Source: Acetobacteraceae bacterium (GTDB lineage: Bacteria > Pseudomonadota > Alphaproteobacteria > Acetobacterales > Acetobacteraceae). From it: 64,000 nt of DNA. The position numbers were made by a program, and so were the translations under genes. Under the pieces are notes generated by a model, which was not told the origin of the DNA, made no database searches, and saw only the letters and a program-made list of their open reading frames with translations. This document shows positions 15,079-34,985 of the stretch, in pieces (the first letter of the stretch is position 1; the number at the start of each line of letters is the position of its first letter). Location of the stretch: positions 62,001 to 126,000 of the forward strand of contig CANJJS010000002.1 in assembly GCA_947474705.1 (NCBI GenBank), written 5' to 3'.

Positions 15079-15308
15079 CTGGGGCTTTGCCCCAGACCCC
15101 ACGAGGGGCTTTGCCCCTTCGAACCCCACCAGGGCGGGGGCCCTGGACCCGTTTAATTGGGGGAGATGAAGAAGGGGGGCCATCCATGACGTATCAACGT
15201 CCGTGTAGGCCCCCCTTCTTCATCTCCCCCAAAAGATGGCATCCAAGGCCCAGCCTTGGCGGGGGTCGAGGGGGCAGCGCCCCTCGCGGGGTCCGGGGCG
15301 GAGCCCCG
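15079..15308. repeat. nested palindromic element, copy A
   Basis: The 230-bp non-coding element has two layers. Inner 25-bp perfect inverted repeats (15157-15181 and 15208-15232, starting TTGGGGGAGATGAAGAAGGG) bracket a 26-bp core (15182-15207). Outer GC-rich arms contain short hairpins such as GGGGCTTTGCCCC and GGGGCAGCGCCCC. A second copy lies at 34752-34985. When the outer arms of the two copies are put in the same orientation, the cores run in opposite directions (about 22 of 26 matching inverted, about 13 direct). It is inserted between the stop of MmgE/PrpD (15315) and the start of the enolase-family gene, and any transcript across it would fold into a long stem. Confidence 0.85.
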
Positions 15309-15314
15309 GTGCCT

Positions 15315-16682
15315 CTACCGCGCCGTCAGAGCCATCAGACCACGCACATCGGGCAGCGACTCGAAAGCGCGGATTTGGGAGATCAGTTCGGCGCAGCGGT
15401 TGGAGCCGAGGACGGGGTCGACAAGTCCAGCGAATTTGGTTTCGAGGCGGCGTCCTTGGTCTTCGGTGTCGGTGGAGGGCAGGCCGGCGTCGTATTTGGT
15501 GTTGAGGCGTGTGCCGTCGGTCAGCAGCAGGTCGATTTCGGCGAAGGTGTTGGGGATGCCGGTTTTGAAGTCCAGTTCGACCTTGTCGCGGAGTTTGACC
15601 AGGCCTTGTTCAGTCGCGACTTCCTCCGAATAGGTGGAAAGGCGTCCGGTATCGATGCCGGAGAGTCCCATGGCGGTGGCGAGGCGAAGCGAGAATTTCG
15701 CTTCGAGGCCGGTTTTCGGCGCCGGGATATTGCAGATGCGGTCGCAGGATTCATCCAGCGAGACGCGGATTTTGTCCACGCGATCCGGCGTGACGCCGTG
15801 TTTCTCGCGCAGGGCGCGGGCGGCTTCGATGGAGGAATGCACCATGTAGCAGGCGGCGTGATATTTGAACAAATTGCTCCGCATGTACCAGCCGTTAACG
15901 GGCGTTTCCAGCGCGCGGTCCGGATGGAAGTCTGGGCTGTGGGTGCTGCCAAAACCTTGTCCGCATTCGATGACGTCGTCGCGGCTGGTGAAGCCGCGTT
16001 TGGCCAGTTTGGCGCCCATCAGGCCGTGATAGGCGGCTTTGCCGGCGTGCAGCGGTTTGCACATCGTGCCGAACATCGATTTCAGGCCGGCGGCCTGGGT
16101 GCCGGCGATCCCGAGCGCGGCGACGAATTGTGCCGCATCCAATTTCAGCAGGTGCGCGCAGGCGGCGGCGGCGCCGAAGCTGCCGATGGTCGCGGTCGCG
16201 TGGAAGCCGAGCACGTCGTAATGGCCTGGCGACAGCACGCGCCCGACGCGGCATTGCAGTTCGTAGCCCGCGACGAAAGCAGTCAGCACGTCGGCACCCG
16301 AGGCTCCGGTTTCTTCCGCCAGCGCCAGCAGCGCGGGCAGGATGGCGACGGAAGGATGGCCCGGCATGGCCAGGTTCACGTCGTCGAAGTCCAAAGCGTG
16401 GGCGGCGGCGCCATTGACCAGCGCGGCGGAGGCGGCGGGAAGCCGTTCCGTATGCCCGAACACGGCCGCGCCTTCGTGCCCGCCCTGCTCGACCATTTCC
16501 GCCAGCAGAATTTCGGTCAGTTCGTCCGACGCGCCGGCGATGCCGCAGGCGATGGCGTCGAGGATGCACTGACGCGCCCATGCCCGTGTTTCCTCGGGGA
16601 TGTCGGCGAGAGTGAGGGCACGGGCCTGTTCGGCCAGGCGGCGCGTCAGACCGGCGCCATTGTTGTCGGCGATCGCGTTCAT
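15315..16682 (-). CDS. MmgE/PrpD family protein
   Basis: The 455-residue protein of the family that includes 2-methylcitrate dehydratase (PrpD), aconitate-decarboxylase-like enzymes and MmgE has the helical domain 1 (LARALTLADIP-type start, AIACGIAGASDE, NGAAAHALDFDDVNLAMPGHPSVAILPALLA split by linkers, FVAGYELQCRVGRVLSP, GFHATATIGSFGAAAACAHLL) and domain 2 with GTMCKPLHAGKAAYHGLMGA, KYHAACYMVHSSIEAA and a C-terminal barrel. The family catalyses hydration, dehydration or decarboxylation of citrate-like acids. It starts 20 bp after the enoyl-CoA hydratase stop, so it is in the same operon. The palindromic element begins 7 bp beyond its stop. Confidence 0.9.
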   Translation of the reverse strand: MNAIADNNGAGLTRRLAEQARALTLADIPEETRAWARQCILDAIACGIAGASDELTEILLAEMVEQGGHEGAAVFGHTERLPAASAALVNGAAAHALDFDDVNLAMPGHPSVAILPALLALAEETGASGADVLTAFVAGYELQCRVGRVLSPGHYDVLGFHATATIGSFGAAAACAHLLKLDAAQFVAALGIAGTQAAGLKSMFGTMCKPLHAGKAAYHGLMGAKLAKRGFTSRDDVIECGQGFGSTHSPDFHPDRALETPVNGWYMRSNLFKYHAACYMVHSSIEAARALREKHGVTPDRVDKIRVSLDESCDRICNIPAPKTGLEAKFSLRLATAMGLSGIDTGRLSTYSEEVATEQGLVKLRDKVELDFKTGIPNTFAEIDLLLTDGTRLNTKYDAGLPSTDTEDQGRRLETKFAGLVDPVLGSNRCAELISQIRAFESLPDVRGLMALTAR

Positions 16683-16702
16683 ATCTGTTCCCTCTCGGCG
16701 GT

Positions 16703-17497
16703 TCAGCGGCCTTGGTAGACCGGTTTACGCTTTTCGTTGAAGGCGCGAATGCCTTCGCGGCGGTCCTCTGTCGGAACCATGCGGTTATAGGCTTCGATTT
16801 CGAACATCATGCCGCTGCGCAGGTCCATGTTGAGGCCCATGTTCACGGACTGCTTCAACTGCCGCGTCGAGATCGGCGCGTTATTGGCGATGACCGCCGC
16901 GGTCTCCAGCGCCTCCGTCAGCAAGGACTCCGCCTTGCAGATGCGGTTCACCATGCCCCAGTCGTAGGCGTCCTGGACCGAGAACGGTTTTCCCGTGAGC
17001 ATGATTTCCTTGGCGCGTCGGGCGCCCACGGCGCGCGGCAGGTTTTGAGTCCCGCCCGCGCCCGGCATGATGCCAAGCGTCACCTCGGTCAGGGCGAAGC
17101 GAGCATGTTCGGCCGCGTAGATGAAATCGGCACAGAGCGAAATTTCCAGCCCGCCGGCGAAGGCGGCGCCGTTGACCGCGGCGATCATCGGTACTGGGCA
17201 ATCCAGCATGGCGCGGATAAAGCGTTCGAAGATCAGATGCTGATCCATCCACTGCTCGTCGGTCATGCCGTTGCGCTGCTTCAGGTCGCCGCCGCCGCAG
17301 AACGCCTTCGAGCCCGCGCCGGTGATGACGATGCAGCGCTGCTTGTTCGGCGCCGCGCAGAACCCGTCGAAGGTGGCCAGCAGGTCGAGCCCCATCTGGG
17401 TGTTCATCGCGTTCGACACCTCGGGCCGGTTCAGCGTGACCAGCACCGTATGTTCCTGAGGGTATTCGATTTTCAGTGTTTCGAGAAGAATTGTCAT
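16703..17497 (-). CDS. enoyl-CoA hydratase/isomerase family protein
   Basis: The 264-residue crotonase-fold protein shows VLVTLNRPEVSNAMNTQMG, the oxyanion-hole segment GAGSKAFCGGGDLKQR, AAVNGAAFAGGLEISLCADF, ALTEVTLGIMPGAGGTQNLPR containing the catalytic Glu region, and a C-terminal helix ending FNEKRKPVYQGR. It would add water to a 2-enoyl-CoA or catalyse a related CoA-ester reaction. The ATG at 17497 overlaps the stop of the serine hydrolase gene as ATGA, so translation is coupled. The frame open further upstream to 18175 reads through the hydrolase gene and is not real. Confidence 0.93.
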   Translation of the reverse strand: MTILLETLKIEYPQEHTVLVTLNRPEVSNAMNTQMGLDLLATFDGFCAAPNKQRCIVITGAGSKAFCGGGDLKQRNGMTDEQWMDQHLIFERFIRAMLDCPVPMIAAVNGAAFAGGLEISLCADFIYAAEHARFALTEVTLGIMPGAGGTQNLPRAVGARRAKEIMLTGKPFSVQDAYDWGMVNRICKAESLLTEALETAAVIANNAPISTRQLKQSVNMGLNMDLRSGMMFEIEAYNRMVPTEDRREGIRAFNEKRKPVYQGR

Positions 17498-18606
17498 GCC
17501 ATCGCCTGTACGATCAGTCTCATGAAGGTATCCGCCGACGCCGGGTCGAGCCAGCGCATCACCGCGACCAGTTCGTGCTCCGGATCGACCCAAGTCAGGT
17601 TGCCGCCCGCGCCGGACGCGAAGAAGCTCCTGGCGGGGGCGCTTTTGTAACGGATATTGCCGGTGTTCAACCACCACAGCAGCCCGTAGCTCGGATTCAG
17701 CGCGCAGGGCACCAGCGACTCCCGGACCCAGAGTTCGGGCAGGATGCGCTTGCCGCGCCATTCCCCGCCCCGGGACATCAGCAGTCCGATCCGCGCCTGA
17801 TCCTCGGCATGGATCAGCATCCCGCCGCCCCAGTGGGTTCCGCCCGCGACTGACTCGATCGCGCGGCCCTCCACATCGACCGTGGAGGTCCGGTAGCCAT
17901 GCCAGGACCAATCCGACGACGCCCCGATCGGCCCCATGATCCGCTCGGCGAACACTTCCGGGAGTGGCCGCCGGAACCGCCGCAGCAGCGCGAGGCTCAG
18001 CCGATTCACGCGAACGTCGTTGTATTCCCAGTGTGTACCGGGCGTTTTCAGCGGCCGCGGATCGCCCTTCTTGCCCTTCCCCTCGACCGCCAGGTTGCGG
18101 TTGCGATCGATGACATCGGATTTGCCGAAAAGCGTCCCTTCCCATTCGGACGTATTCTGAAGGAGCATCCGCCATGTAATGGCGCCGTTATGCGCCCCCT
18201 CGAACCCGCCATCGTCCACCGTGCGCCGCACCGGTTCGTCGAGGTCCGCGATCAGCCCGTCCATGACCGCGATCCCCGCGAGCATGCTGAGGTAGCTCTT
18301 CGCCGCGGAAAACGTGAAATCCACCTGGTCGGTGTCGCCCCAACTAATCACCTTCGCCCCGCGGCGCAGCACCAGCCCGTTCGGCTCGCCCCGGGGACGG
18401 ACCGGACCGAGAATTTCGTTGTCCGGCGGCGCCTCGAAGAAACCGGATTCGAGGTGCAGACGCAAATCGCGCGGCCAGGGCGTCTCGTTCTCCGACGCGA
18501 AACGGGCGGCTTCTTCCAGCCACATCCAGTTCATGCCGGCCACATCCGCCGCGGCTTCTGGCCAGGGCGCGCCATGCGGCGGCGGGAAAATGGCGGGCAA
18601 GGTCAT
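17494..18606 (-). CDS. serine hydrolase, class C beta-lactamase-like
   Basis: The 370-residue hydrolase of the beta-lactamase/esterase (PF00144) family has SxxK in FTFSAAKSYLSMLAGIAVMD split around the catalytic Ser, the YxN-type motif EYNDVRVNRLSLALL, and the HWGGGMLIHAEDQARIGLLM region in place of KTG. No signal peptide is obvious, so it is probably a cytoplasmic esterase or amidase rather than a resistance enzyme. The ATG at 18606 follows GGAGAG. It is the first gene of the minus-strand catabolic operon and could hydrolyse an ester or lactone to start the pathway. It is divergent from the Crp/Fnr gene (92 bp). Confidence 0.88.
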   Translation of the reverse strand: MTLPAIFPPPHGAPWPEAAADVAGMNWMWLEEAARFASENETPWPRDLRLHLESGFFEAPPDNEILGPVRPRGEPNGLVLRRGAKVISWGDTDQVDFTFSAAKSYLSMLAGIAVMDGLIADLDEPVRRTVDDGGFEGAHNGAITWRMLLQNTSEWEGTLFGKSDVIDRNRNLAVEGKGKKGDPRPLKTPGTHWEYNDVRVNRLSLALLRRFRRPLPEVFAERIMGPIGASSDWSWHGYRTSTVDVEGRAIESVAGGTHWGGGMLIHAEDQARIGLLMSRGGEWRGKRILPELWVRESLVPCALNPSYGLLWWLNTGNIRYKSAPARSFFASGAGGNLTWVDPEHELVAVMRWLDPASADTFMRLIVQAMA

Positions 18607-18698
18607 GCGTCTCTCCGGCGGCGTGTCCGGCCAGACTAGACCGGCCAACGGATCGGCGCATAGTGCATGCCCGAAACCTGTTCGGGGCAAAACAAAAC

Positions 18699-19403
18699 AT
18701 GAAGTCCATGGACCAGGAAGCACGCCGCCGCGTGCTGCTTTCCAGCCCGCTGTTCGACGCCCTGCCGCGCGAGGCGCTGGACGACATCCTGGCGCGCGCG
18801 GGCGACAAATTCGTTCGCCGCGGCCAGACCATTTTTCTCAAGGGCGACGAAGGCTCCTACATGGTCGCCGTCCTCAGCGGGCGCATGCGGATCAGCGCGA
18901 CCTCCCCCGAGGGGCGCGAAATCACCCTGAACATGATCGATGCCGGCGAGGTCTTCGGCGAAATGGCCCTGCTGGACGGCAAAACCCGCAGCGCGGATGC
19001 CACCGCGCTGGAAGACAGCCAGTTGCTGCTGGTTGAGCGGCGCGATTTCCTGCCGCATCTGATGTCCAACCTGACCCTGGCCTTGCGCCTGATCGACGTG
19101 CTCTGCGCGCGTCTGCGCGACACCTCGGAAACGCTCGGCAATTTCGCCATGCTGGACCTTCCTGGGCGTCTTTCGCGCCGGTTGCTGACACTGGCGGCGG
19201 AATATGGCCATTTCGTCGATGGCCAGATCCGGCTGAACATCCGGTTGTCGCACACCGACCTCGGGCGTTTCGTCGGCAGTTCCCGCGAATCCGTGAACAA
19301 ACAAATGCGCGCTTGGGAAGAAGACGGCATCGTCGCGCGTGCCGACAGCCGGATCGCACTGTGCAAACCGGATGCGCTGCGCCGGATCGCGGGCCAGGAT
19401 TAG
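18699..19403 (+). CDS. Crp/Fnr-family transcriptional regulator
   Basis: The 234-residue regulator has an N-terminal cyclic-nucleotide-binding jelly roll (VRRGQTIFLKGDEGSYMVAV, SGRMRISATSPEGREITLNM, DAGEVFGEMALLDGKTRSADA), a dimerisation helix, and a C-terminal HTH_Crp domain (IRLSHTDLGRFVGSSRESVNKQMRAW in two parts). FGEMALLDGKTRSA resembles the cAMP-binding cassette, and no N-terminal Fe-S cysteines are seen, so cAMP or another nucleotide is likelier than oxygen sensing. A GTG at 18663 would add 12 residues; the ATG at 18699 is preferred though its ribosome site is weak. It is divergent from the hydrolase operon and 210 bp before the importer genes, either of which it may control. Confidence 0.9.
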   Translation: MKSMDQEARRRVLLSSPLFDALPREALDDILARAGDKFVRRGQTIFLKGDEGSYMVAVLSGRMRISATSPEGREITLNMIDAGEVFGEMALLDGKTRSADATALEDSQLLLVERRDFLPHLMSNLTLALRLIDVLCARLRDTSETLGNFAMLDLPGRLSRRLLTLAAEYGHFVDGQIRLNIRLSHTDLGRFVGSSRESVNKQMRAWEEDGIVARADSRIALCKPDALRRIAGQD

Positions 19404-19613
19404 GCGACACCGGAGAAGCCGCCGTCTGAACCAAAAGCTTAGGGTCCGTTCGACACGGCCGATCGCTTCGATCGTCGCCGAACAAGCCCTTGGCGGCGCA
19501 AAGCGCCACGGGACGGACGAAAGCGAGACCGTCTCGAAACGGACATCGTTCGCGAGCGTGACAACCGCGCGCGCCAGGCGTTAACAACGCGCGCCAGCCC
19601 CGATCGGAGAGAC

Positions 19614-21338
19614 ATGCGGACCGCGAACACCCCCGCTCTGGCCACCGCGCGCCGCCTGCCCAACATCTGGGATGTGGTCGCGCTGGTCTGCGTGTTCGCC
19701 ACGCTGATTACGATCTCCCACATCGCCCGCGGCACGCTGGTGCCGATCGACGCGCCGGGGGCGACGGACATCGGCCTCGATCCATGGCGGCTACCGGAAT
19801 ACGCGGCGCGAACGACATTGCGCATGTTCGCGGCCTTGGCTTTGGCGCTGCTGTTCACCTTCACCTATGGCACCGCCGCCGCCAAAAGCCGCCGGGCCGG
19901 AACCATCCTGGTGCCGCTGCTGGATATCCTCCAGTCCGTGCCCATTCTGGGATTTCTGACCTTCACCGTCGTGTTCTTCATGAACCTGTTCCCGGGCCAG
20001 GTGCTCGGCCTGGAACTGGCGGCGATCTTCGCCATCTTCACCAGCCAGGCCTGGAACATGGCGTTCAGCATGTACCAGTCGCTGCGCACCGTGCCCGCCG
20101 ACCTCGCGGAAGCCTCGGTCAGTTTCCACCTCAGCGCCTGGCAGAAATTCTGGCGGCTGGAGGTGCCCTTCGCGATCCCGGGCCTGGTGTGGAACACCAT
20201 GATGTCCATGTCCGGCGGCTGGTTCTTCGTGGTGGCGTCGGAAGCGATTTCCGTGGGCGACAACACCTGGAAACTGCCGGGCATAGGTTCCTATATCGCG
20301 GTCGCGCAGGCGCAGCGCGATTTCGCGGCGATCGGCTATGCCATCGTCGCGATGCTGGTCGTCATCCTCGCCTACGACCAGTTGCTGTTCCGCCCTCTCG
20401 TCGCCTGGTCGGCGAAATTCCGCTTCGAAACCACCGCGGGCGCGACCGCCGCCGATCCCTGGATGCTGCGACTGATCCGCCGCACCCGCCTGCTCAGCGC
20501 GCTGGGCGACATCGCCGGACAGAGCCTCTCCGCCATCGGCGGCATGCGCATGTCCTTCAGACGCGGCACGCGCCGCCGCGCCACCGAAGGCTCCCGCCTC
20601 ACGGGCGCCATCTGGACCTTTTGCATCGCCGCCTTCTTCGCCTGGGGGGCCTGGCGCGCCTTCACCTTCGCCTCCGCCGAACTGACCTGGCGCGATCTCG
20701 GCGACGCCGTCCTGCTGGGCCTGATCACCATGGTCCGCGTCGTGGTTCTGATGATCCTCGCCAGCCTGGTCTGGGTGCCCATCGGAGTCTGGCTCGGCCT
20801 GCGTCCCGCATGGGCGCGCCGGGCGCAACCGGTGGCGCAGTTCCTGGCGGCCTTCCCGGCCAATTTGTTCTTCCCGGTCTTCGTCGTCGCGATCGTCCAT
20901 TTCCACCTGAACCAGGAAATCTGGCTGACGCCGCTCATGATCCTGGGAACGCAGTGGTACATCCTGTTCAACGTCGTCGCGGGCGCCGCCGCCTTTCCCG
21001 GCGACCTGCGCGAGGCCGCCGCGAATTTTCGCATCGGCGGCCTGTTGTGGTGGCGTAAAGTCATGATCCCCGGGATCTTTTCATACTATATCACCGGCGC
21101 CATCACCGCGTCCGGCGGCTGCTGGAACGCCGCGATCGTGGCCGAGGTCGTGTCCTGGGGCGATACGAAACTCGTGGCCCATGGTCTGGGCGCCTATATC
21201 GCCACCGCCACCGAAAAGGGCGACATGGCCCGCGTCGTTCTGGGCGTCGCCGTCATGTCCGCCTTCGTGCTGTCGTTCAACCGCCTCGTCTGGCACCCGC
21301 TTTACGCCTTCGCGCGCCGCAGACTCACCCTGGGATAG
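19614..21338 (+). CDS. fused double ABC permease (NitT/TauT type)
   Basis: The 574-residue membrane protein contains two complete binding-protein-dependent permease domains in one chain: residues about 20-270 and about 330-570. Each has the cytoplasmic EAA-like loop (PADLAEASVSFHLSAWQKFWRL shortened; and GDLREAAANFRIGGLLWWRK). The first half has the segment GWFFVVASEAISVGDNTWKLPG and the second GGCWNAAIVAEVVSWGDTKL, typical of nitrate/sulfonate/taurine-class importers. CGGAGAGAC precedes the ATG. The ATPase gene follows after 9 bp. No substrate-binding protein is adjacent, so substrate is unknown. In such fused systems the two halves replace a permease homodimer. Confidence 0.9.
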   Translation: MRTANTPALATARRLPNIWDVVALVCVFATLITISHIARGTLVPIDAPGATDIGLDPWRLPEYAARTTLRMFAALALALLFTFTYGTAAAKSRRAGTILVPLLDILQSVPILGFLTFTVVFFMNLFPGQVLGLELAAIFAIFTSQAWNMAFSMYQSLRTVPADLAEASVSFHLSAWQKFWRLEVPFAIPGLVWNTMMSMSGGWFFVVASEAISVGDNTWKLPGIGSYIAVAQAQRDFAAIGYAIVAMLVVILAYDQLLFRPLVAWSAKFRFETTAGATAADPWMLRLIRRTRLLSALGDIAGQSLSAIGGMRMSFRRGTRRRATEGSRLTGAIWTFCIAAFFAWGAWRAFTFASAELTWRDLGDAVLLGLITMVRVVVLMILASLVWVPIGVWLGLRPAWARRAQPVAQFLAAFPANLFFPVFVVAIVHFHLNQEIWLTPLMILGTQWYILFNVVAGAAAFPGDLREAAANFRIGGLLWWRKVMIPGIFSYYITGAITASGGCWNAAIVAEVVSWGDTKLVAHGLGAYIATATEKGDMARVVLGVAVMSAFVLSFNRLVWHPLYAFARRRLTLG

Positions 21339-21347
21339 ACGATCGTC

Positions 21348-22640
21348 ATGGATGCACCCTTGCTCGAAGTGCTCGCCTGCCGGCAGAGCTACCATAAAGA
21401 AGCCAGCGCCGATCTGGTGGTGCTGGACGACGTCAATCTGACGCTGCGAGAGGGCGAGATCGTCGCGCTGCTGGGACGTTCCGGCTCCGGGAAATCGACC
21501 CTTTTGCGGATTGTCGCGGGCTTGCTGAAACCCACGGCGGGGACGGTGTCCTGGCGCGGCGGCGCGGTCTCCGGCCCGACCGAGGGCATAGCGATGGTGT
21601 TCCAAAGTTTTGCCCTGTTCCCCTGGCTGACCGTGCAGGAAAACGTCGAACTCGGCCTGGAAGCACGCGGCGTGCCCCGCGCCGAGCGCGAAAAACGCGC
21701 CGAGGACGCGTTGGACCTGATCGGTCTGGGCGGGTTCTCGTCAGCCTATCCGAAAGAACTCTCCGGCGGCATGCGCCAGCGTGTCGGGCTGGCGCGCGCT
21801 TTGGTCGTTTATCCGGATTTGTTGCTGATGGACGAACCGTTCAGCGCGCTGGACGTGCTGACCGCGGAAACCCTGCGCACCGATTTGGTGGAATTGTGGG
21901 CGGAAGGAAAACTCCCCGTCAAATCCGTGCTGATGGTGACACATAATATCGAGGAAGCGGTTCTCATGTGCGACCGCATACTCGTCTTCTCCTCCAATCC
22001 TGGGCGGGTCGCCAGCGAACTGATTGTCCCCTTCCCTCACCCGCGCAACCGTCTCGACCCGGCGTTCCGGGAAATGGTCGATGGCATCTACGCCCTTATG
22101 ACACGCCGCGCCGTGCCCGAACCGAAAGCCGCCGCCGTCCAGGCCCACCCCTTGGCGATGCCATTGGAACGAGTCGGCATCAACCTGATGGCCGGCCTGA
22201 TGGAGGCCGTCGCCGCCCCGCCCTATGACGGCCGCGCCGACCTGCCCGCCTTGGCCGCGACCCTTCATTACGAGGTCGACGACCTGCTGCCCCTTGGCGA
22301 AACGCTGCAATTGTTCCGCTTCGCCATCCTGGAGGAAGGCGATATTTTGCTAACCGAAAAAGGCCGCGCCTTCACCCAGGCCGATGTCGATGGCCGCCGG
22401 GTGCTGTTCGCGGAAGCGCTGCGCGCGCATGTGCCGCTGGCGGGCATGATCCGGCAGGTGCTGGACGAGCGATGGAACCACCGGGCCTCCGCGGTGCGGT
22501 TCCGGGACGAGCTGGAAGACCACATGTCGCCGGATTACGCGGCCGATACACTTCGCGCCGTGATCGGATGGGGGCGTTACGCGGAATTGTTCAGTTACGA
22601 CGAGGAGGCGGAGCAGTTCAATTTGGAGGATCTGGAGTGA
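21348..22640 (+). CDS. ABC transporter ATPase with C-terminal AAA-associated domain
   Basis: The 430-residue protein has an N-terminal ABC ATPase (residues about 5-240) with Walker A GRSGSGKSTLLRI, Q-loop VFQSFALFPWLTV, signature LSGGMRQRVGLARAL, Walker B LLLMDEPFSALD and switch His in MVTHNIEEAV. The C-terminal 150 residues match the AAA-associated domain found in some NitT/TauT-type importers (PLGETLQLFRFAILEEGDI, GRAFTQADVDGRR, FRDELEDHMSPDYAADTLR). It follows the double permease by 9 bp, so the two form an operon energising uptake of an unidentified small anion or organic compound. The 3' end overlaps the remnant toxin frame on the other strand. Confidence 0.92.
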   Translation: MDAPLLEVLACRQSYHKEASADLVVLDDVNLTLREGEIVALLGRSGSGKSTLLRIVAGLLKPTAGTVSWRGGAVSGPTEGIAMVFQSFALFPWLTVQENVELGLEARGVPRAEREKRAEDALDLIGLGGFSSAYPKELSGGMRQRVGLARALVVYPDLLLMDEPFSALDVLTAETLRTDLVELWAEGKLPVKSVLMVTHNIEEAVLMCDRILVFSSNPGRVASELIVPFPHPRNRLDPAFREMVDGIYALMTRRAVPEPKAAAVQAHPLAMPLERVGINLMAGLMEAVAAPPYDGRADLPALAATLHYEVDDLLPLGETLQLFRFAILEEGDILLTEKGRAFTQADVDGRRVLFAEALRAHVPLAGMIRQVLDERWNHRASAVRFRDELEDHMSPDYAADTLRAVIGWGRYAELFSYDEEAEQFNLEDLE

Positions 22641-22830
22641 AGCTGGCGGGAACCAGGCATCCTCGGGCCAGCACCCAAACCAGTTCGCCTAACATAGCAG
22701 TCCCCAGCGTGACCGTCTCCGCCGCCGCCAGTTCCGCCTTGGCCCGCGGACTCCGATCGGGATCGTCCCCGGCGAAGGCCCGCGCCACTATATTCGTATC
22801 GGGCGCGATCCTCACCCTTCGTTCGCCCAC
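22618..22830 (-). pseudogene. truncated vapC-type toxin remnant
   Basis: On the minus strand, from a GTG at 22830, 70 codons read VGERRVRIAPDTNIVARAFAG, DDPDRSPRAKAELAAAET and MLGELVWVLARGCLVP before homology stops and the frame ends within the 3' end of the ABC ATPase gene. The 5' half of the intact PIN toxin at 23918-24331 matches it at about 83% of bases (22647-22830 against 24148-24331, counted by eye). Just upstream, another frame still reads GWANEG, the last residues of the antitoxin, so the duplicated segment included the gene overlap. It lacks the C-terminal PIN acidic residues and is presumably inactive. Confidence 0.8.
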
Positions 22831-22890
22831 CCACCCTTCCCCAACCTCGCCCCCACCCGCCATAACCGCGCCAACAGCCCGGAGCGCCCC

Positions 22891-23859: not shown

Positions 23860-23917
23860 TGGCGCGGACCAGCGATGGCGAAAAGACCTGAGCAGCCCCC
23901 TTTTCAGGCGCGCGGTC

Positions 23918-24331
23918 TCACGCGGGCAATCGCGCTTGCTGTCCGGAGGCCCGCGATAACCTGACCGCCGTCCGGTCGAACGACACAAAGACCTCCGCCC
24001 CCAGCGTACGCCCCTCGTGCGCGATCGCCCCATCCGCGAAATCGCCCCCGTTCTCGAGCATCGCCAGCCCAGCCTCCACCGCGAGCCGATCCACCACGAC
24101 ATTCTCCGCCTCGATCGCCCGCCGGATCGCCACCGCGATCTCCCGGGCGGGAACCCGATATCCTCGCGCCAACACCCAAACCAACTCGCACAACATCGTC
24201 GTTCCCAGCGCGATCGTCTCCGCCGCCGCCAGTTCGGCTTTGGCGCGCGCGCTCTGATCGGGATCGTCTCCGGCCATGGCCCGCGCCATCACGTTCGCGT
24301 CCGGCGCGATCCTCACCCTTCGTTCGCCCAT
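23918..24331 (-). CDS. PIN-domain toxin, VapC-like
   Basis: The 137-residue PIN ribonuclease is the toxin of a type II toxin-antitoxin pair. The first acidic residue is in RIAPDANVMARAMAGDDPDQ, the second in TTMLCELVWVLARGY, and the later acidic cluster in ENGGDFADGAIAHEGRTLGAEVFVSFD. That gives the usual four-acid Mg site for RNA cleavage (tRNA or rRNA in studied VapCs). Its start overlaps the antitoxin stop by 19 bp, typical of coupled expression. The C-terminal tail after SFDRTAVRLSR is short. A truncated relative lies at 22618-22830. Confidence 0.88.
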   Translation of the reverse strand: MGERRVRIAPDANVMARAMAGDDPDQSARAKAELAAAETIALGTTMLCELVWVLARGYRVPAREIAVAIRRAIEAENVVVDRLAVEAGLAMLENGGDFADGAIAHEGRTLGAEVFVSFDRTAVRLSRASGQQARLPA

Positions 24332-24564
24332 CCCTCGGACGCGATCCGGTTCATGTCCTCAAGGGACAAAGTGGGGCCATTTTCGCGCTTCAGGAGATCG
24401 AAGACATCGGATATCCGCCCGGTCCGCCGCGCCGCCACGACCTCGATGCGCCCGTCCGGGCGCTTGTCGATGTCGATCTTGTCGCCGGCTTTAACGCCGA
24501 GATGCGCGAGCAGGTCCTTGCGCAAAGTGATCTGGCCTTTGGCGGTGACGGTCAGGGTGGCCAT
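24313..24564 (-). CDS. AbrB/SpoVT-type antitoxin
   Basis: The 83-residue protein has an N-terminal swapped-hairpin AbrB fold: TLTVTAKGQITLRKDLLAHLGVKAGDKIDIDK in outline, followed by RIEVVAARRTGRISDVFDLL and a C-terminal segment LSLEDMNRIASEGWANEG that would wrap the PIN toxin. It should bind its own promoter and neutralise VapC. The ATG at 24564 begins the two-gene unit; the stop overlaps the toxin start. The antitoxin tail GWANEG survives out of frame beside the remnant copy near 22835. Confidence 0.88.
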   Translation of the reverse strand: MATLTVTAKGQITLRKDLLAHLGVKAGDKIDIDKRPDGRIEVVAARRTGRISDVFDLLKRENGPTLSLEDMNRIASEGWANEG

Positions 24565-25543: not shown

Positions 25544-25547
25544 CGCC

Positions 25548-27834: not shown

Positions 27835-27967
27835 GGTTGCGATCATATACGCCTGGCGGGGCCGTGTCTCCCGATTTCGCCGGGGAAACACCCCCCAGGC
27901 CGCCGCGCGGGCTCTCGCGGTTTGGAAGCACCCGTGGTACTCTTGGCCCATCCAAAGGAGCTCCCAC

Positions 27968-28882
27968 ATGCGCAAGGCTTTATTGCTTCCGATCCTCGGT
28001 CTGTTTATCGGCCTGACAACCCAGACCCACACGGCGGATGCCCCCGGCGGCACGCTCCAAAAAATCAAGGAAACCAAGCTCATTACCCTGGGCGTGCGCG
28101 ACAGCTCCGCGCCATTCTCCTACCTCGACGCCCAGCAGAAACACACCGGCTATGCCATCGAAGTCTGCCTGCGGATCGTCGCCGCGGTGAAAAAAGAACT
28201 CAACCTTCCGGACATCAAGGTCGAGATGACCTCGGTCACCTCGGCGACCCGCATTCCGCTGATGGCGAACGGCACGATCGATCTGGAATGCGGCTCCACC
28301 ACCAATAACGCCGAGCGTCAGAAGCAGGTCACCTTCACCAACACCCACTTCCTCACCGCCTCCGTCTTCGTCGCGAAAAAAAGCGCGAACCTGAAACGGA
28401 TCGACGACCTGAAAGGCAAGACCGTGGTCTCCACGGCCGGATCGACCAACATCGTCCAGCTTGAAAAGGCCAATGCCGAACGCAAACTCGGCATCACCGT
28501 CATTCCGGCGAAAGATCACGCGGAGGGCCTGCTGATGGTCGAAACCGGCCGCGCCGCCGCCTTCGTCATGGACGACGTGATCATCGCGGGCCTCGTCGCC
28601 GGCGCGAAAGATCCAGGCATGTTCGCGCTGGGATCTGAACCCTTCTCCCGCCCCGAGCCCTACGGCATCATGCTCCGCAAGGACGACCCGGCGTTCAAGG
28701 CCATCGCGGATCGCGTCACCGCCGAAGTGTTTAAGAAAGACGGCGAAGCGCTTTACAAGAAATGGTTCCTGTCGCCGATCCCGCCGAAGAACATCAACAT
28801 GAACCTGGCCCTGACGCCGGCGATGAAGAAAGCGCTGGCCAACCCGTCCTCCAACCCCGATCCGGCGAGCTATGCCGACTGA
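27968..28882 (+). CDS. periplasmic amino-acid-binding protein (glutamate/aspartate type)
   Basis: The 304-residue solute-binding protein of the polar amino acid family (SBP_bac_3) has the signal peptide MRKALLLPILGLFIGL with probable cleavage near THTADA. Then come LGVRDSSAPFSYLDAQQKHTGY, IDLECGSTTNNAERQKQVTF, GKTVVSTAGSTNIVQLEKAN, DHAEGLLMVETGRAAAFVMD and a C-terminal helix pair, close to the GltI/DEBP group. AGGAG precedes the ATG. It is the first gene of a four-gene importer unit with two permeases and an ATPase, delivering Glu, Asp or a similar dicarboxylic amino acid to the membrane complex. Confidence 0.93.
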   Translation: MRKALLLPILGLFIGLTTQTHTADAPGGTLQKIKETKLITLGVRDSSAPFSYLDAQQKHTGYAIEVCLRIVAAVKKELNLPDIKVEMTSVTSATRIPLMANGTIDLECGSTTNNAERQKQVTFTNTHFLTASVFVAKKSANLKRIDDLKGKTVVSTAGSTNIVQLEKANAERKLGITVIPAKDHAEGLLMVETGRAAAFVMDDVIIAGLVAGAKDPGMFALGSEPFSRPEPYGIMLRKDDPAFKAIADRVTAEVFKKDGEALYKKWFLSPIPPKNINMNLALTPAMKKALANPSSNPDPASYAD

Positions 28883-28894
28883 TCCTTCGCCGGA

Positions 28895-29623
28895 ATGAAC
28901 TACCACTGGAACTGGGGCATCTTTCTGGAGCCGTCGCCGGAAGGGAACGGCACCTACGGGCAGATGCTCCTGTCCGGGCTTTGGATGACGCTTCAGGTTT
29001 CCGTCCTGGCCTGGACCCTGGCGCTTTGCGCCGGGTCCTGCGTCGGGGTCGTCAGAAGTCTGCCGAGCGCATGGGCGCGGCGACTTTCGGACGTCTGGAT
29101 CGAACCGCTGCGCAACATTCCGTTATTGGTGCAATTGTTTCTCTGGTATTTCGTGCTGCCGGAACTGATCCCGGAAACCTGGGGCGACTGGCTGAAACAA
29201 CTTCCGAACGCGCCGTTTTACAATGCCGTGGTGGGCGTGGGTCTGTTCATGTCGGCCCGCGTCGCCGTTCAGGTCGCCACCGGCCTCGCGGCCCTGCCCC
29301 GCGGGCAAATGGCCGCCGGCCTCGCGCTGGGCCTGACTCCTGGACAGACCTATCGTTACGTCTTGTTGCCCATGGCGTTCCGCGTCGTGCTGCCGCCGCT
29401 GACCAGCGAACTCATTAACACCATCAAGAACACCTCCGTCGCGCTCACCATCGGACTCGCCGAACTCACGGCCCGCGCCCGCGCGGTGCAGGAATTTTCC
29501 TTTCAGGTGTTCGAGGCCTTCGCCGCCGCGACACTCGGTTACCTCGCGATCAACCTGCTGGCGACGCTCGCCATGCGGCTGATCGAACGTCAGGCGCGCC
29601 TGCCCGGCTACGGCAAGGCCTGA
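28895..29623 (+). CDS. amino acid ABC transporter permease (GltJ-like)
   Basis: The 242-residue inner-membrane permease of the HisM/GltJ class has an N-terminal NYHWNWGIFLEPSPEG typical of GltJ, then TM helices (MTLQVSVLAWTLALCAGSCV and later hydrophobic runs) and the ATPase-docking loop AALPRGQMAAGLALGLTPGQ followed by RVVLPPLTSELINTIKNTS. It pairs with the next gene's product as a heterodimer. It starts 12 bp after the binding-protein stop and ends 3 bp before the next permease. Confidence 0.93.
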   Translation: MNYHWNWGIFLEPSPEGNGTYGQMLLSGLWMTLQVSVLAWTLALCAGSCVGVVRSLPSAWARRLSDVWIEPLRNIPLLVQLFLWYFVLPELIPETWGDWLKQLPNAPFYNAVVGVGLFMSARVAVQVATGLAALPRGQMAAGLALGLTPGQTYRYVLLPMAFRVVLPPLTSELINTIKNTSVALTIGLAELTARARAVQEFSFQVFEAFAAATLGYLAINLLATLAMRLIERQARLPGYGKA

Positions 29624-29626
29624 ACG

Positions 29627-30319
29627 ATGTTCTCCAATTTCGACTTTGGCGAGATCTGGCGCGCGCTGCCGTTTCTGTTTCTCGACGGCATGCGGTTCAC
29701 GCTGACGCTGACCTTTCTGGCGACGGCCGGCGGGATCTTGTTGGGCACCGTTCTCGCGCTGCTGCGGCTGTCCGGGGGACGCGCGGTTTCCGCGATCGTC
29801 GCTGGCTATGTCAACCTGATGCGGTCGCTGCCGCTGCTGCTGGTGATATTCTGGTTTTACTTTCTGGTGCCCTATGTCGGGCAATGGGTCATGGGCGCGC
29901 CACGGCCGATTAAAGTCGGCGGCTTCACCTCGGCGCTGCTGACGTTCACGTTGTTCGAGGCGGCGTATTTCTCCGAAATCATCCGGGGCGGCATCCAGTC
30001 GATTCCGAACGGCCAGGCCGCGGCGGCGGCGGCTTTGGGGCTGACGCACGCGCAAACCATGCGTTACGTGATCCTGCCTCAGGTGTTCCGGACCATGCTG
30101 CCGGTGCTTCTGACGCAGACCATCGTGCTGTTTCAGGACACGTCGCTTGTGTATGTCCTGTCGCTGGACGATTTTCTGGGCGTGGCCTCCAAGATCGCCC
30201 AGCGCGACGGACGTCTGGTGGAATTATATCTGTTCGCGGCGCTGGTTTATTTCGCGATCAGTTTCTGCGCCTCCCAGGCCGCGCGCCGGCTGCAATCCCG
30301 CGTCGCCATCGTCCGATGA
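29627..30319 (+). CDS. amino acid ABC transporter permease (GltK-like)
   Basis: The 230-residue partner permease shows IWRALPFLFLDGMRFTLTLT, GYVNLMRSLPLLLVIFWFYF, the EAA-type loop SIPNGQAAAAAALGLTHAQTM and VILPQVFRTMLPVLLTQTIV, then DTSLVYVLSLDDFLGVAS, all typical of GltK. It forms the translocation pore with the GltJ-like subunit. The stop overlaps the ATPase start as ATGA, so translation is coupled. Confidence 0.93.
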   Translation: MFSNFDFGEIWRALPFLFLDGMRFTLTLTFLATAGGILLGTVLALLRLSGGRAVSAIVAGYVNLMRSLPLLLVIFWFYFLVPYVGQWVMGAPRPIKVGGFTSALLTFTLFEAAYFSEIIRGGIQSIPNGQAAAAAALGLTHAQTMRYVILPQVFRTMLPVLLTQTIVLFQDTSLVYVLSLDDFLGVASKIAQRDGRLVELYLFAALVYFAISFCASQAARRLQSRVAIVR

Positions 30320-31071
30320 GCCAAACCATGTCCGATATCGTCATCAGTCTGGATCGCGTGAACAAGTGGTACAATCCCACCTTCCAGGTGCTGAAAGATT
30401 GCTCCCTGGACGTCCGCAAGGGCGAGGTCGTGGTGGTCTGCGGGCCCTCCGGGTCCGGCAAATCGACACTTATTAAATGCGTCAACGCACTGGAACCGTT
30501 TCAGTCCGGCGAGATCGCGGTGGACGGGGTTCGCCTGCGCGAAAAGGGCGTGGACCTGCCGAAACTGCGGGCCCGCGTGGGCATGGTGTTTCAGAATTTC
30601 GAGTTGTTTCCGCATTTGTCGGTGCTCGAGAATCTGGACCTGGCGCAGTTGAAGGTGCTGGGGCGGAGTAAGGACGAGGCGCGGGCGAAGTCGGAAGCGC
30701 TGCTGCGCCGCGTCGATCTGGCGGCGCACGCGGCGAAATACCCGGGCCAGTTATCGGGTGGCCAGCAACAGCGTGTGGCGATTGCGCGGGCGTTGGCCAT
30801 GGACCCGGTCGCGATGTTGTTCGACGAACCGACCAGCGCGCTCGATCCCGAAATGGTATCGGAAGTGCTGGACGCGATGGTGGAACTGGCGCGCGAGGGG
30901 ATGACCATGATGGTTGTCACGCACGAGATGGGATTCGCGCGGAAGGTGGCGCACCGGGTGGTGTTCATGGACCGGGGGGAGATCGTTGTCGACGCGGAAA
31001 AGGAGGAGTTTTTCGCGGCGAACGGCAACGAGCGGGCACGGGTGTTTTTATCGAAGATTTTGGGGCACTGA
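30316..31071 (+). CDS. amino acid ABC transporter ATPase (GltL-like)
   Basis: The 251-residue ATPase energises the preceding importer. Motifs are Walker A GPSGSGKSTLIKC, Q-loop VFQNFELFPHLSVLEN, signature LSGGQQQRVAIARAL, Walker B AMLFDEPTSALDPEMV and switch VTHEMGFARKVA, then VFMDRGEIV. The length equals GltL/GlnQ-type subunits. It completes the operon binding protein - permease - permease - ATPase. A start at residue 5 (MSDIV) is also possible. The downstream gene is convergent. Confidence 0.95.
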   Translation: MSQTMSDIVISLDRVNKWYNPTFQVLKDCSLDVRKGEVVVVCGPSGSGKSTLIKCVNALEPFQSGEIAVDGVRLREKGVDLPKLRARVGMVFQNFELFPHLSVLENLDLAQLKVLGRSKDEARAKSEALLRRVDLAAHAAKYPGQLSGGQQQRVAIARALAMDPVAMLFDEPTSALDPEMVSEVLDAMVELAREGMTMMVVTHEMGFARKVAHRVVFMDRGEIVVDAEKEEFFAANGNERARVFLSKILGH

Positions 31072-31144
31072 CTGGCCCGGCCATGGCGCACCGCCAGGCC
31101 GGAACCAAAGTCGCGATGGGGGTGCCGAGCGTCCGGCCGACCGG

Positions 31145-32686
31145 TTAGCCCTTGACCTCCAACGTCTCGAACGGCGCCTGATAAACAAATCCGGGAATGC
31201 GGCCGAAGCTTGTCTCAACGGCTTTCGGGCCGGCGGCACATAGGAATCCTAACTGCCATAGCGGGACGAACATGTCCTTTTCGTGCATGATTTTCTGAAT
31301 GTCGTGCAAAAGCGCGGTTCGCTTTTCCAGGTCGATTTCGCGCGACTGGCGCGCGAACAAGGCGTCGATTTCGGGATATCCGCCGTAGGAATAGGGCGCG
31401 TCCGAAAGTGCCCACAACGCGATCCGGGTCGCGGCGTTGCCCAAAGCGGCGCTGCCGGCCTGGATGATGCCTTTCTTGAAGCGCTTGTCCTCGAAGCCCT
31501 TGTTGAACGCGACCCGTTCGATGGCGCGCAGTTGCAGCCGGATGCCGGCGGCGGAGAGGTTGTTGACGGACGCTTCGCCCAGATTGGCGTAGGACGAATC
31601 GCACCAGTAAAAACCGGCATCGAAGCCACCGGGATATCCGGCCTCAGCCAAGAGTTTCATGGCCTGTTTGGGGTCGAACACCGGCAGCGGCGACTTCCAG
31701 TAAAACGGCAGATGCTGGGGCACGATGTTGCTGGTGACCCGGGAATAACCGAGGTTCAGCGCCTGGTTGATGGAATTGTAGTCCAACGCCAAAGCCGCCG
31801 CGCGCCGCACCTTCGGGTTGGACCAGGGCGATTTCGGGTCCCATTGCTCCGGGAAACACATCCAATACGTCGCGCCATCCGGGGCCAGTTGCAATTTCAG
31901 ATCGGTGGATCGTTTCACCTCCGCGGCGAGTTCGCCGCGGACCGAATAGGCGAAATCGACTTCCCCGCGTTTCAGCGCGATCAGCCGTGTCGCGTCGTCG
32001 GGCACGACTTTCATGACGATGCGTTTGACTTTCGGCGCGCCGCGCCAATAGGATTCGTTGGCTTCCAGCACCAGTTCGACGCCGGGATCGAAAGAGACGA
32101 ATTTATAAGGGCCCGCGCCGATCGGGGCTTTGCGGAAACCCGCGTCGCCGACTTTCTCGATGTATTTTTTCGGCAGAATCCAGTTGGCGCCGGTGGACGC
32201 CACATAGAACGCCATGAAGTCGGGCCATGCTTCTTTCAGCCGGAAGATAATTCGGGATTTGTCCGGTGTTTCCAATGCGGCGATGTTGTCGCGCAGGAGT
32301 TTCGCGGCATAGCCGTGGTAGCGTTCGAAGGTGAATTTCACGTCCTCGACGGTCACGGGTTCGCCGTTATGGAACGTAGGGCCTTCGCGCAGGACGAATT
32401 CATGGGTCAGCCCGTCCGGCGACATTTTATGGGACGTGGCGAGGCTTGGGGTTTCCAGGCCCTCGGGCATCGCTTTGACCAGGGCGTCGTGCAGGCCGTA
32501 GGTCAGCATATAGGGTGTGACCAGTCCGCCGGTGTCGCTCGGGTCGAACCAGGAGGGCGGCAGGGACACGTGCACGGCGACGGTCATGGTGCCGGATGGG
32601 GCCGCGGCGGCGCTGTCAGTCAGCGCGGCGAACAGGCCGGAGGCCGTGAGCGCGAGGCCGCGGCGGCGGGTAACGGTCGGAATCAT
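31145..32686 (-). CDS. peptide/nickel-type ABC substrate-binding protein (SBP_bac_5)
   Basis: The 513-residue periplasmic binding protein of the oligopeptide family has a twin-arginine-like leader (VTRRRGLALTASGLFAAL, cleavage near AAAA-PSG), then WFDPSDTGGLVTPYMLTYGL, KMSPDGLTHEFVLREGPTFHNG, EDVKFTFERYHG, GAGPYKFVSFDPGVELVLEA and LAEAGYPGGFDAGFYWCDSS. The RRRG suggests Tat export but Sec cannot be excluded. The ATG at 32686 follows GAGAGATCC. No permease or ATPase genes lie beside it, so it is an orphan subunit. It is convergent with the glutamate importer. Confidence 0.9.
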   Translation of the reverse strand: MIPTVTRRRGLALTASGLFAALTDSAAAAPSGTMTVAVHVSLPPSWFDPSDTGGLVTPYMLTYGLHDALVKAMPEGLETPSLATSHKMSPDGLTHEFVLREGPTFHNGEPVTVEDVKFTFERYHGYAAKLLRDNIAALETPDKSRIIFRLKEAWPDFMAFYVASTGANWILPKKYIEKVGDAGFRKAPIGAGPYKFVSFDPGVELVLEANESYWRGAPKVKRIVMKVVPDDATRLIALKRGEVDFAYSVRGELAAEVKRSTDLKLQLAPDGATYWMCFPEQWDPKSPWSNPKVRRAAALALDYNSINQALNLGYSRVTSNIVPQHLPFYWKSPLPVFDPKQAMKLLAEAGYPGGFDAGFYWCDSSYANLGEASVNNLSAAGIRLQLRAIERVAFNKGFEDKRFKKGIIQAGSAALGNAATRIALWALSDAPYSYGGYPEIDALFARQSREIDLEKRTALLHDIQKIMHEKDMFVPLWQLGFLCAAGPKAVETSFGRIPGFVYQAPFETLEVKG

Positions 32687-32813
32687 CGGGATCTCTCGTG
32701 CGATGGCGTTTTCACGGGTACGGTACGACCGCGCGCGGCACACGTCGAGTCAACTCGGAACCGGGCCGGCACGCGAGGCGATCGCCGCCGGCCCGGCGGC
32801 GATCGCGTTGCTG

Positions 32814-34646
32814 TTACTCGGCGGCTTCGGCTTCGATCTTACGTTCGTTGCGCTTGCGCTCGTGCGGGTCGAGGTAGCGTTTGCGCAGGCGGACGGCGGC
32901 GGGGGTCACTTCCACCAGTTCGTCGTCCTCGACGTAGGCGATCGCCTGTTCCAGGCTCATTTTCCGCGGCGGAATCAGAAGCATCGCGTCGTCCTTGCTG
33001 ACGGAGCGGACGTTGGTCAGCTTCTTTTCCTTGATCGGGTTCACTTCCAGATCGTTCTCGCGGGCGGTCTCGCCCAGTATCATGCCCTGGTAGACTTTTT
33101 CGCCGGGGGAGATGAAGAGGGTGCCGCGTTCCTGGATGTACCAGAGCGCGTAATGCACGGCCTCGCCCGGTTCGGTGGAGATCAGCGCGCCTGCGCGGCG
33201 TCCCTCCAGCACGCCTTTCCAGGGACCGTAGCCCGCGAACAGCCGGTTCATGATGCCGGTGCCGCGGGTGTCCGTCAGGAACTCGCCGTGATAGCCGATC
33301 AGTCCGCGGCTGGGGATCAGGAAGGTCATGCGGACCTTGCCGCCGCCGGAGGGGCGCATGTCCTGCATTTCGCCTTTGCGGCGGCTGAGTTTTTCCACCA
33401 CGACGCCGGAATAGGGCTCGTCCACATCGACCAGCACTTCTTCCATCGGCTCTTCCCGTTCGCCCGTTTCCGGGTTGCGCCGGGTCAGCACGCGGGGGCG
33501 GCCGATGGTCAGTTCGAAGCCTTCGCGGCGCATCTGTTCGATCAGAACGCCGAGTTGCAGTTCGCCGCGGCCCGCGACCTCGAAGGCGTCGGTTTCGTTG
33601 GAGACGGAGACCTTGATGGCGACGTTGCCCTCGGCTTCCGACAGAAGGCGTTCGCGAATCTGGCGGGAGGTGACTTTCTTACCTTCGCGGCCGGCCAGGG
33701 GGCCGTCGTTGATGCGGAAAGTCATGGCCAGGGTCGGGGGATCGACGGGGATGGCGTGCAGCGGTTCCGCCAGATCGGGCGCGCCGATCGTGTCGGGGAT
33801 GGTGCCTTCGGACAGGCCCGCGACGGCGACGATATCGCCCGCCTGGCACTCGTCCACCGGCACGCGCTCCAGGCCGCGGAAGCTCAGCAGCTTGGTCAGG
33901 CGTCCGGTTTCGACGACCGTGCCGTCGGCGCGCAGCACCTTGACGGGCATGTTGACCTTGGCCGAGCCCTGTTCGACGCGTCCGGTCAGGATGCGTCCGA
34001 GGAAGGGATCGGATTCGAGGATCGAGGCGACCATGGCGAAGGGCGCGTCCGGCTTGACGGTTGGCGCGGGCACGTGGCTGACGATCATGTCGAACATCGG
34101 CGCCAGATCGACGCGCGGGTCGTCCAACGCGGCGACAGCCCATCCCTGACGGCCGGAGGCGTAGAGCATGGGGAAATCGAGCTGGCTGTCGGTCGCGTCG
34201 AGCGCGGCGAACAGATCGAACACCTCGTTATGCACCTCGTCGGCGCGGGCGTCCTGGCGGTCGATCTTGTTGACCACGACAATCGGATGAATGCCGCGCG
34301 CCAAAGCCTTGCCGACCACGAACTTGGTCTGCGGCAGCACGCCCTCGGCGGCATCGACCAGCACGATGGCGCCATCGACCATGCCCAGAATACGTTCGAC
34401 CTCGCCGCCGAAATCGGCGTGGCCGGGCGTATCGACGATGTTGATGCGGATATCCTTCCAAAGCACGGAGGTGCATTTGGCGAGGATGGTGATCCCGCGC
34501 TCTTTTTCCAGCTCGTTGCGATCCATCGCGCGTTCCGCGACGTGCTGATGGTCCCGGAAGGTTCCGGACTGGCTGAGCAGCTTATCGACGAGGGTGGTCT
34601 TGCCATGATCGACGTGAGCGATGATGGCGACGTTCCGGATTTGCAT
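32814..34646 (-). CDS. typA: translational GTPase TypA/BipA
   Basis: The 610-residue ribosome-associated GTPase is linked to 50S assembly and stress growth. G1 is [18 protein letters not shown], switch I lies in [14 protein letters not shown]3 in [19 protein letters not shown], and G4 in [12 protein letters not shown]. The EF-G-like domains III and V follow with [20 protein letters not shown] and [20 protein letters not shown] split. The BipA-specific C-terminal domain has [20 protein letters not shown] and [19 protein letters not shown]. The ATG at 34646 starts the homology; the longer frame upstream reads into palindromic element B. Normal length for the family. Confidence 0.97.
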
Positions 34647-34751
34647 ACTGACCTTGGATTTGGATGGTGCGGCGCACACATAGGGCGAATGGCCGCGGAA
34701 TAACAGCCCTTTCGGCGTGCCTGGCGGGGCAATCGCGCGAAGGGAGAGAGT

Positions 34752-34985
34752 CCCAGGGCTCCGCCCCGGACCCCGTGGGGGGCGCTGCCCCCTCAACCCC
34801 CGCCAAGGCAGGGCCTTGGATGCCGTCTTGTTTGGGGGAGATGAAGCAGGGGGGCCATCGAGGACGTATCGACGTCCGTGTAGGCCCCCCTGCTTCATCT
34901 CCCCCAATTAAACGGGTCAGGGCCCCCGCCCTGGTGAGGTTCGAAGGGGCAAAGCCCCTCGCGGGGTCCGGGGCGGAGCCCTGGG
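34752..34985. repeat. nested palindromic element, copy B
   Basis: The second copy of the 230-bp element at 15079-15308 lies here. The inner arms 34832-34856 and 34883-34907 (TTGGGGGAGATGAAGCAGGG and its complement) are perfect inverted repeats. They differ from copy A by one base in each arm, and the two changes are compensatory, so pairing is kept. The core is 34857-34882. The GC-rich outer arms run in the opposite orientation to copy A, yet the core runs in the same orientation. It lies between the histidine kinase stop (35006) and the typA start, again between two genes on the same strand. Confidence 0.85.

What the first reader, a model, noticed from the sequence alone, without database searches (positions are those of the whole stretch)
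15079..34985. Two copies of a nested palindromic element with the core flipped relative to the arms
Copy A (15079-15308) and copy B (34752-34985) share GC-rich outer arms, 25-bp inner inverted repeats and a 26-bp core. Aligning the outer arms puts B in reverse orientation to A, but then the cores match far better inverted (about 22 of 26) than direct (about 13 of 26). This looks like inversion of the core at the inner inverted repeats, by a recombinase, by cruciform resolution or by replication. Inner-arm differences between copies (AGAAGG against AGCAGG) are compensated on both arms, so pairing is preserved by selection or gene conversion.
Basis: seen in the sequence. Interest (0 to 1): 0.7.

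Follow-up and report, generated by a model that had tools for sequence, protein, structure and literature searches.

The report
Mobile palindromes with a flipping core
Two odd palindromes in this Acetobacteraceae genome belong to a large family of small transposon-like elements whose central piece can point either way relative to its outer arms, probably because DNA copying sometimes jumps between the two sides of the palindrome.

Summary
Copies A and B belong to a dispersed family; I extracted 60 full copies from this genome. All 60 carry one P and one Q arm. The core points either way: AT end towards P in 32, towards Q in 22, 6 not scored. A second species shows both relations clearly.

The element is a miniature transposon: its youngest copies have CAGGSCAATCGG ends and 10-bp target duplications, and two ISAs1-family insertion sequences in this genome have nearly the same ends.

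The inner stem differs between copies and species but pairs within each copy, so a sequence-specific recombinase is unlikely. Loops of short stems hardly invert (1 of 179). This fits template switching between palindrome arms, reported in yeast for arms over 9 bp (PMC8604942), or exchange of cores between copies through the symmetric stem; I could not separate these. No clear core flip was seen at an orthologous locus: 4 of 4 resolvable cores are unchanged between two sister species.

The parts
15080..15156 (+). Copy A, P arm with three small hairpins
   Evidence: Sequence; P motif shared by all 60 extracted copies
15157..15181 (.). Copy A, left inner stem, 25 bp
   Evidence: Perfectly complementary to 15208-15232
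15182..15207 (+). Copy A core, AT end next to the P arm
15208..15232 (.). Copy A, right inner stem, 25 bp
15233..15308 (-). Copy A, Q arm with three small hairpins
34725..34751 (+). Copy B, degenerate terminal repeat on the Q side (CGGGGCAATCGC..., 2 mismatches to CAGGSCAATCGG)
   Evidence: no recognisable terminal repeat on its P side and no target duplication shown for A or B
34752..34831 (+). Copy B, Q arm
34832..34856 (.). Copy B, left inner stem, 25 bp
34857..34882 (+). Copy B core, AT end next to the Q arm, so inverted relative to the arms as compared with A
34883..34907 (.). Copy B, right inner stem, 25 bp
34908..34985 (-). Copy B, P arm (its CCCTGGACCC motif lacks one base, so the script labelled it '?' and I assigned it by eye)

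Best explanation
A and B are old copies of a miniature inverted-repeat transposable element (about 290-330 bp when both ends are recognisable), related by its ends to ISAs1-family insertion sequences and spread in an Acetobacteraceae genus. From outside inwards: terminal repeats, a P and a Q arm with three small hairpins each, a perfect inner stem of about 25 bp, and a polar 26-27-bp core that holds a hairpin. Shown: anatomy, 10-bp target duplications of young copies, ends shared with ISAs1 elements, both core orientations, compensated stems. Inferred: in replication the growing strand switches template between the arms of the inner stem, or to another copy through that symmetric stem, and returns. 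Copying through the core inverts it; copying one arm onto the other keeps the stem perfect while its sequence drifts. Stems of 5-7 bp hardly do this, so small loops keep their polarity. Also inferred: copies with two equal arms would be long near-perfect palindromes and are lost, which keeps copies P/Q.
For: Orientation 32 to 22 of 54 scored copies; 18 changes on the arm tree, no fewer than shuffled labels (17.3, sd 1.7). G016 first subfamily: relative to L107 the core-arm relation is the same in L116 and L173 and opposed in L174, L175 and L179, with cores 85-100% identical in the better orientation. Identical cores in both orientations; L050/L087 have identical cores, fairly close arms (distance 0.11, 7th percentile) and opposite orientation. 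Short-loop control: 1 of 179 three-base loops inverted. Own stem pairing 22.9 of 24 against 20.0 (sd 0.19) for permuted arms. Outer flanks also pair within copies (12.6 against 6.8, sd 0.34). Cores turned into palindromes (L086 8 of 8 end positions, L035 7 of 8). Mobility: 13 of 20 copies with both ends have 10-bp flanks matching at 8 or more, against 0.26% of cross pairs; four ISAs1 ends match the element ends at 15-17 of 18. Published mechanism: PMC8794818 and PMC8604942 (passages).
Against: No unambiguous core flip at an orthologous locus; 4 of 4 resolvable cores unchanged between G006 and G007. Identical cores sit in distant arms (for example L054/L069, 97th percentile) and arms, stem and core are hardly linked (Mantel r 0.04-0.09), which favours exchange between copies as much as in-place inversion. 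In G006/G007/G009, 84 of 91 pairs could not be decided. The hetero-arm explanation is untested. Neither ISAs1 copy shows a clear target duplication.
Confidence: 0.55

Rival explanations
1. Gene conversion between copies: cores are replaced by cores of other copies and, as the flanking stem is a perfect palindrome, pasted in either orientation. No in-place inversion is needed.
For: Identical cores in copies with distant arms; weak linkage of arms, stem and core; L085 and L089 share core and Q-side stem but have different P-side stems, as if a junction lay inside the stem.
Against: Crossing over between inverted copies in the stem would make P/P and Q/Q copies, and 0 of 60 were found; only two-sided exchange would do. 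L050/L087: same core, fairly close arms, opposite orientation.
Confidence: 0.25
2. Homologous recombination or cruciform processing between the two inner arms of one copy inverts the core.
For: Keeps P/Q arms, gives both orientations; long inverted repeats fold well.
Against: A crossover across a 26-bp core between 25-bp arms is sterically hard (general knowledge); it does not explain why stems drift as paired units or why some cores became palindromes.
Confidence: 0.1
3. A site-specific DNA invertase acts on the inner arms.
For: Two orientations of a segment between inverted repeats.
Against: The inner-arm sequence differs between copies and species. The four genes flanking A and B are an enolase-superfamily enzyme, MmgE/PrpD, BipA and a histidine kinase; recombinases elsewhere in the genome were not searched.
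Confidence: 0.03
4. Assembly error: short-read assembly put the cores in at random.
For: Draft assemblies (205 contigs); the one element with two equal tails, L192, lies at a contig edge.
Against: 4 of 4 resolvable orthologous cores agree between two separately assembled species (chance 1 in 16). Stem, core and stem span about 76 bp, within one ordinary read (read lengths not known here).
Confidence: 0.05

Closest known systems
Bacterial MITEs (Correia/NEMIS, ERIC, RUP, YPAL, QMITE; passages of PMC2229807 and PMC10969869)
   Same: Short, non-coding, intergenic, terminal repeats, target duplications, strongly folding
   Different: G+C-rich, larger (about 290-330 bp), no TA termini, three nested palindrome levels, hetero arms and a core in both orientations; the passages I saw describe no such inversion
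ISAs1-family insertion sequences (NCBIfam NF033564)
   Same: Ends match at 15-17 of 18 positions at four ends of two elements in the same genome
   Different: The element has no transposase and its inside is unrelated palindromic DNA; mobilisation in trans is inferred
Template-switch mutations at inverted repeats (PMC8794818, PMC8604942; passages)
   Same: Arm homogenisation and spacer or loop inversion, the latter in yeast only with arms over 9 bp
   Different: There single events in genes; here a dispersed repeat family with the two orientations at 32 to 22
REP/REPIN elements, GTAG and CGTC families (PMC3733652; passages)
   Same: Repeated palindromes in intergenic DNA; the paper notes that unlike partners (heterodimers) are preferred without obvious explanation, as with P/Q here
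   Different: REPs are 20-40 bp with a GTAG or CGTC tag; no RAYT in element-rich relatives; the paper says CGTC repeats are missing in Acetobacteraceae

Membership tests
MITE | Short repeated element without a transposase gene | tested here: met
   288-330 bp between recognised ends in full copies; no transposase-sized frame fits in that length; 60 copies
MITE | Terminal inverted repeats | tested here: met
   20 of 22 loci tried had both ends; flanks pair within copies more than between copies
MITE | Target site duplication | tested here: met
   10 bp; own pairs 7.35 of 10, cross pairs 3.0; 13 of 20 at 8 or more. Not shown for A or B
MITE | Ends shared with an autonomous element | tested here: met
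   Two ISAs1-family elements, 15-17 of 18; mobilisation not tested
MITE | A+T-rich, often TA at the termini (typical, not strict) | tested here: not met
   Sequence is visibly G+C-rich and ends in CAGG; the fraction was not computed
ISAs1-derived element | Target duplication of 8-10 bp (length recalled) | tested here: met
   10 bp; searches did not supply the published figure
REPIN/RAYT | RAYT (Y1 transposase, PF01797) accompanies the repeats | tested here: not met
   1 copy in G000, 0 in element-rich G004, G013, G016, G018, G023; these assemblies are 64-97% complete
DNA invertase system | Conserved crossover sites | tested here: not met
   Inner arms not conserved
DNA invertase system | Recombinase gene next to the segment | tested here: not met
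   Four genes flanking A and B are not recombinases; the other copies were not tested
Template-switch inversion | Arm homogenisation with loop inversion | tested here: met
Template-switch inversion | Inversion of the same core in place | tested here: inconclusive
   4 of 4 resolvable orthologous cores unchanged, others not orientable
Structured RNA family (Rfam) | Match to a known family | tested here: not met
   0 matches in the window at gathering scores

The most novel reading that the evidence does not exclude
The family is a natural multi-level recorder of replication template switching: each nested palindrome level (whole element, hairpin block, core) inverts independently, copies with two equal arms are lost as long palindromes, and the stems drift as paired units, so many copies across a genus log switch events as a function of stem length.
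Probability: 0.33. Interest if true: 0.7.

Novelty: new variant of a known kind. Interest (0 to 1): 0.5.

Why it matters
Template switching at hairpins is mostly inferred from single events. A dispersed family with a polar core in a symmetric stem, unlike arms as reference and short-loop hairpins as built-in controls gives many replicates of one natural experiment in one genome and its genus. It could show how inversion depends on stem length and how long perfect stems persist without RNA selection. It also warns that compensated changes alone do not prove a functional RNA.

Tried and rejected
A conserved RNA was considered because stems covary. Not favoured: no Rfam match; no strand preference relative to codirectional genes (16 to 19, crude gene calls); mismatched stem cells are not clearly G-U (10 G-U and 5 A-C of 46 in 57 copies, with L022, L027 and L061 dropped; 15 and 11 with all 60). 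REPIN/RAYT not supported. Plasmid search of copy A: no match. An exact arm pattern in the named genomes: 0 (the window's own genome may be left out there). A BipA N-terminus search of viral contigs was of no use. G016/G000 orthologous elements were too diverged to orient cores. Mantel tests gave no strong linkage; the one nominal signal, stem with orientation (r 0.083, p 0.02), is one of nine tests and I do not lean on it. My first by-eye reading of core polarity in G006/G007/G009 (7 to 5) was not borne out by identity scoring: 84 of 91 pairs undecided, 2 same, 5 opposed. In G016's second subfamily the by-eye count was 9 to 3; scoring gave 19 pairs same, 15 opposed, 44 undecided. Paper searches for such repeats in Acetobacteraceae or alphaproteobacteria listed none whose title or abstract start describes this family; the library holds open-licence papers only. 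E. coli palindrome work (PMC3315005, passages) showed no spacer inversion in the passages seen.

Copies dropped or not scored: L026 repeats the second copy on L021; L088 and L092 are degenerate and not among the 60; L022 (core parsed wrongly), L027, L035, L063, L067 and L086 (cores near-palindromic or low score) are among the 60 but not scored. L122, found later, is not among the 60. One search's first look had 180 candidates and scored 40, so the family is larger than my set, which is biased to stems like that of A.

Full report
What is there. With arms aligned in opposed orientation the cores match 23 of 26 on the same strand and 13 of 26 reversed. The window is part of contig C2 of a 5.48-Mb draft genome of 205 contigs. 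Of the 80 best BipA relatives returned among named genomes, the top one is an Acetobacteraceae metagenome-assembled genome at 92%. A ends 6 bp from the end of a MmgE/PrpD frame and B 20 bp from the end of a histidine-kinase frame.

A family. The whole-element search listed 40 places in this genome (40 scored of 180 first-look candidates), and the inner-arm pattern gave 94 hits against 0 for its reversed control. I extracted 60 non-redundant copies: 56 by inner arms within 6 mismatches plus L017, L027, L061 and L064. All 60 have one P arm (ending CCAGGGCGGGGGCCCTGGACCCRTTTAATT, often with an insert) and one Q arm (ending CCAAGGCAGGGCCTTGGATGCCRTCTKTTT): 59 by script, copy B by eye.

Core orientation. 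The core is polar, with an AT end and a TA end. The AT end faces P in 32 copies and Q in 22; 6 of 60 were not scored (the looser cut gives 33, 25 and 2 once copy B is turned by hand). On a tree made from the arms alone, which is poorly resolved (6 of 57 inner branches well supported), orientation changes at least 18 times, no fewer than under shuffled labels (17.3, sd 1.7). Identical cores occur in both orientations, for example L012/L047, L050/L087 and L054/L069.

Internal control. Of 179 three-base loops in the short G+C hairpins of the arms, read from outside inwards, 1 was in inverted form and 3 were of neither form. Third-hairpin loops, where parsed (57 of 60 Q, 31 of 60 P), showed no inverted form. 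Inversion thus goes with the long stem. [quoted passage not shown] A caveat: the small loops may be under other constraints.

Stem pairing. Over 24 stem positions a copy matches itself at 22.9 and other copies at 20.0 (permutation sd 0.19; 28 of 60 perfect; 33 different left stems). L061 has an unrelated stem sequence that pairs (misregistered, which understates it). Outer flanks also pair within copies (12.6 against 6.8, sd 0.34). A few cores have become palindromes (L086, L035). These are marks of copying one arm onto the other, which needs no RNA selection (mechanism in PMC8794818, passages).

Mobility. Young copies begin CAGGSCAATCGG. Of 22 loci tried 20 had both ends; the 10 bp outside match 7.35 of 10 in own pairs and 3.0 in cross pairs, 13 of 20 reach 8, and windows of 8, 9 or 11 bp fall to near background. 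Deletion derivatives without the inner hairpin also have duplications (L120, L121, L123). The end pattern and the DDE_Tnp_1_assoc family led to two ISAs1-family elements: contig C200, with a transposase shortened to 271 aa, and contig C193, with a 381-aa frame scoring E 2e-110 to NF033564. Their four ends match the element ends at 15-17 of 18. In 60 control stretches the best match was 14 or less in 58; the 2 that reach 17 are the overlapping loci L033 and L034, which contain a copy's own end. Neither insertion sequence shows a clear target duplication.

Relatives. Of 40 genomes searched with copy A, 15 had matches, the own genome included; all are among the 24 of the same genus, and 0 of 16 outside it matched. 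Not every match is an element: several loci show no long stem. Where present, the architecture is kept with other stem sequences. In G016's first subfamily, relative to L107, core and arms agree in L116 and L173 and are opposed in L174, L175 and L179; L176 is opposed but below my threshold. In its second subfamily 19 pairs agree, 15 are opposed and 44 are undecided; in G006/G007/G009 84 of 91 pairs are undecided. By eye, three G006/G007 loci (L143, L147, L150) carry first and second hairpins in crossed phase on both sides, others in parallel phase, as if an inner block had inverted; in line with this, L143 matches L147 and L150 clearly in one direction (85 and 87% against 69 and 73%) and parallel-phase copies about equally in both. 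One element, L192, at a contig edge, has two equal tails.

Orthologous loci. Between G006 and G007 (88-94% flank identity) four elements keep arms and core orientation, two of them with a small insert in one species; three others have lost or replaced the inner hairpin in one species. Against G009 (about 74-81%), L208 has swapped arms relative to L151 (85 and 89% crossed, 68 and 71% direct); relative to L156, whose right arm has an insert, only one arm shows it (69 and 85% crossed, 69 and 68% direct). L218 against L148 is weak (77 and 69% crossed, 65 and 68% direct), L217/L147 undecided, and the cores at L208 and L217 cannot be oriented with confidence. Whole-element inversion in place is therefore likely at one locus, with independent insertion the alternative; core inversion in place is inferred, not seen.

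Judgement. The family is a new MITE with nested palindromes, unlike arms and a core in both orientations. In-place template switching and exchange of cores between copies both use the symmetric stem and are not separated here. A sequence-specific recombinase and an assembly artefact are unlikely.

Noticed in passing
22 of 60 G000 P arms, 0 of 60 Q arms; L122, L156, L158 and L217: A separate insert of about 21-24 nt (CCCGCCTTCGCAGGGGCAAGC and variants) sits at different places in the arms in different species, and is absent from the orthologous copy in two cases (L151, L157): a further, smaller mobile-looking repeat.
   Followed up: partly
L125 (G000:C85, about 4000-4320): Recognisable element ends enclose a different inside, an inverted repeat around ATCCACGGAATGAAAAT / ATTTTCATTCCGCGGAT.
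   Followed up: no
L171 and L164 (G006), L170 (G007), L218 (G009); L119, L120, L121, L123, L124, L126 (G000): Copies with arms or ends but without the inner hairpin, at loci where a sister species has it in several cases: frequent loss of the long hairpin.
   Followed up: partly
G000:C193:460-1671: A second transposase-like frame (403 aa) lies beside the ISAs1 element on the same 3.7-kb contig; part of it matched DDE_Tnp_1_assoc.
   Followed up: no
window 1042-1148 and 45721-45827; 22645-22832 and 24146-24333: Other repeats in the window: an inverted pair of 107 nt (86%) and a direct pair of 188 nt (83%).
   Followed up: no
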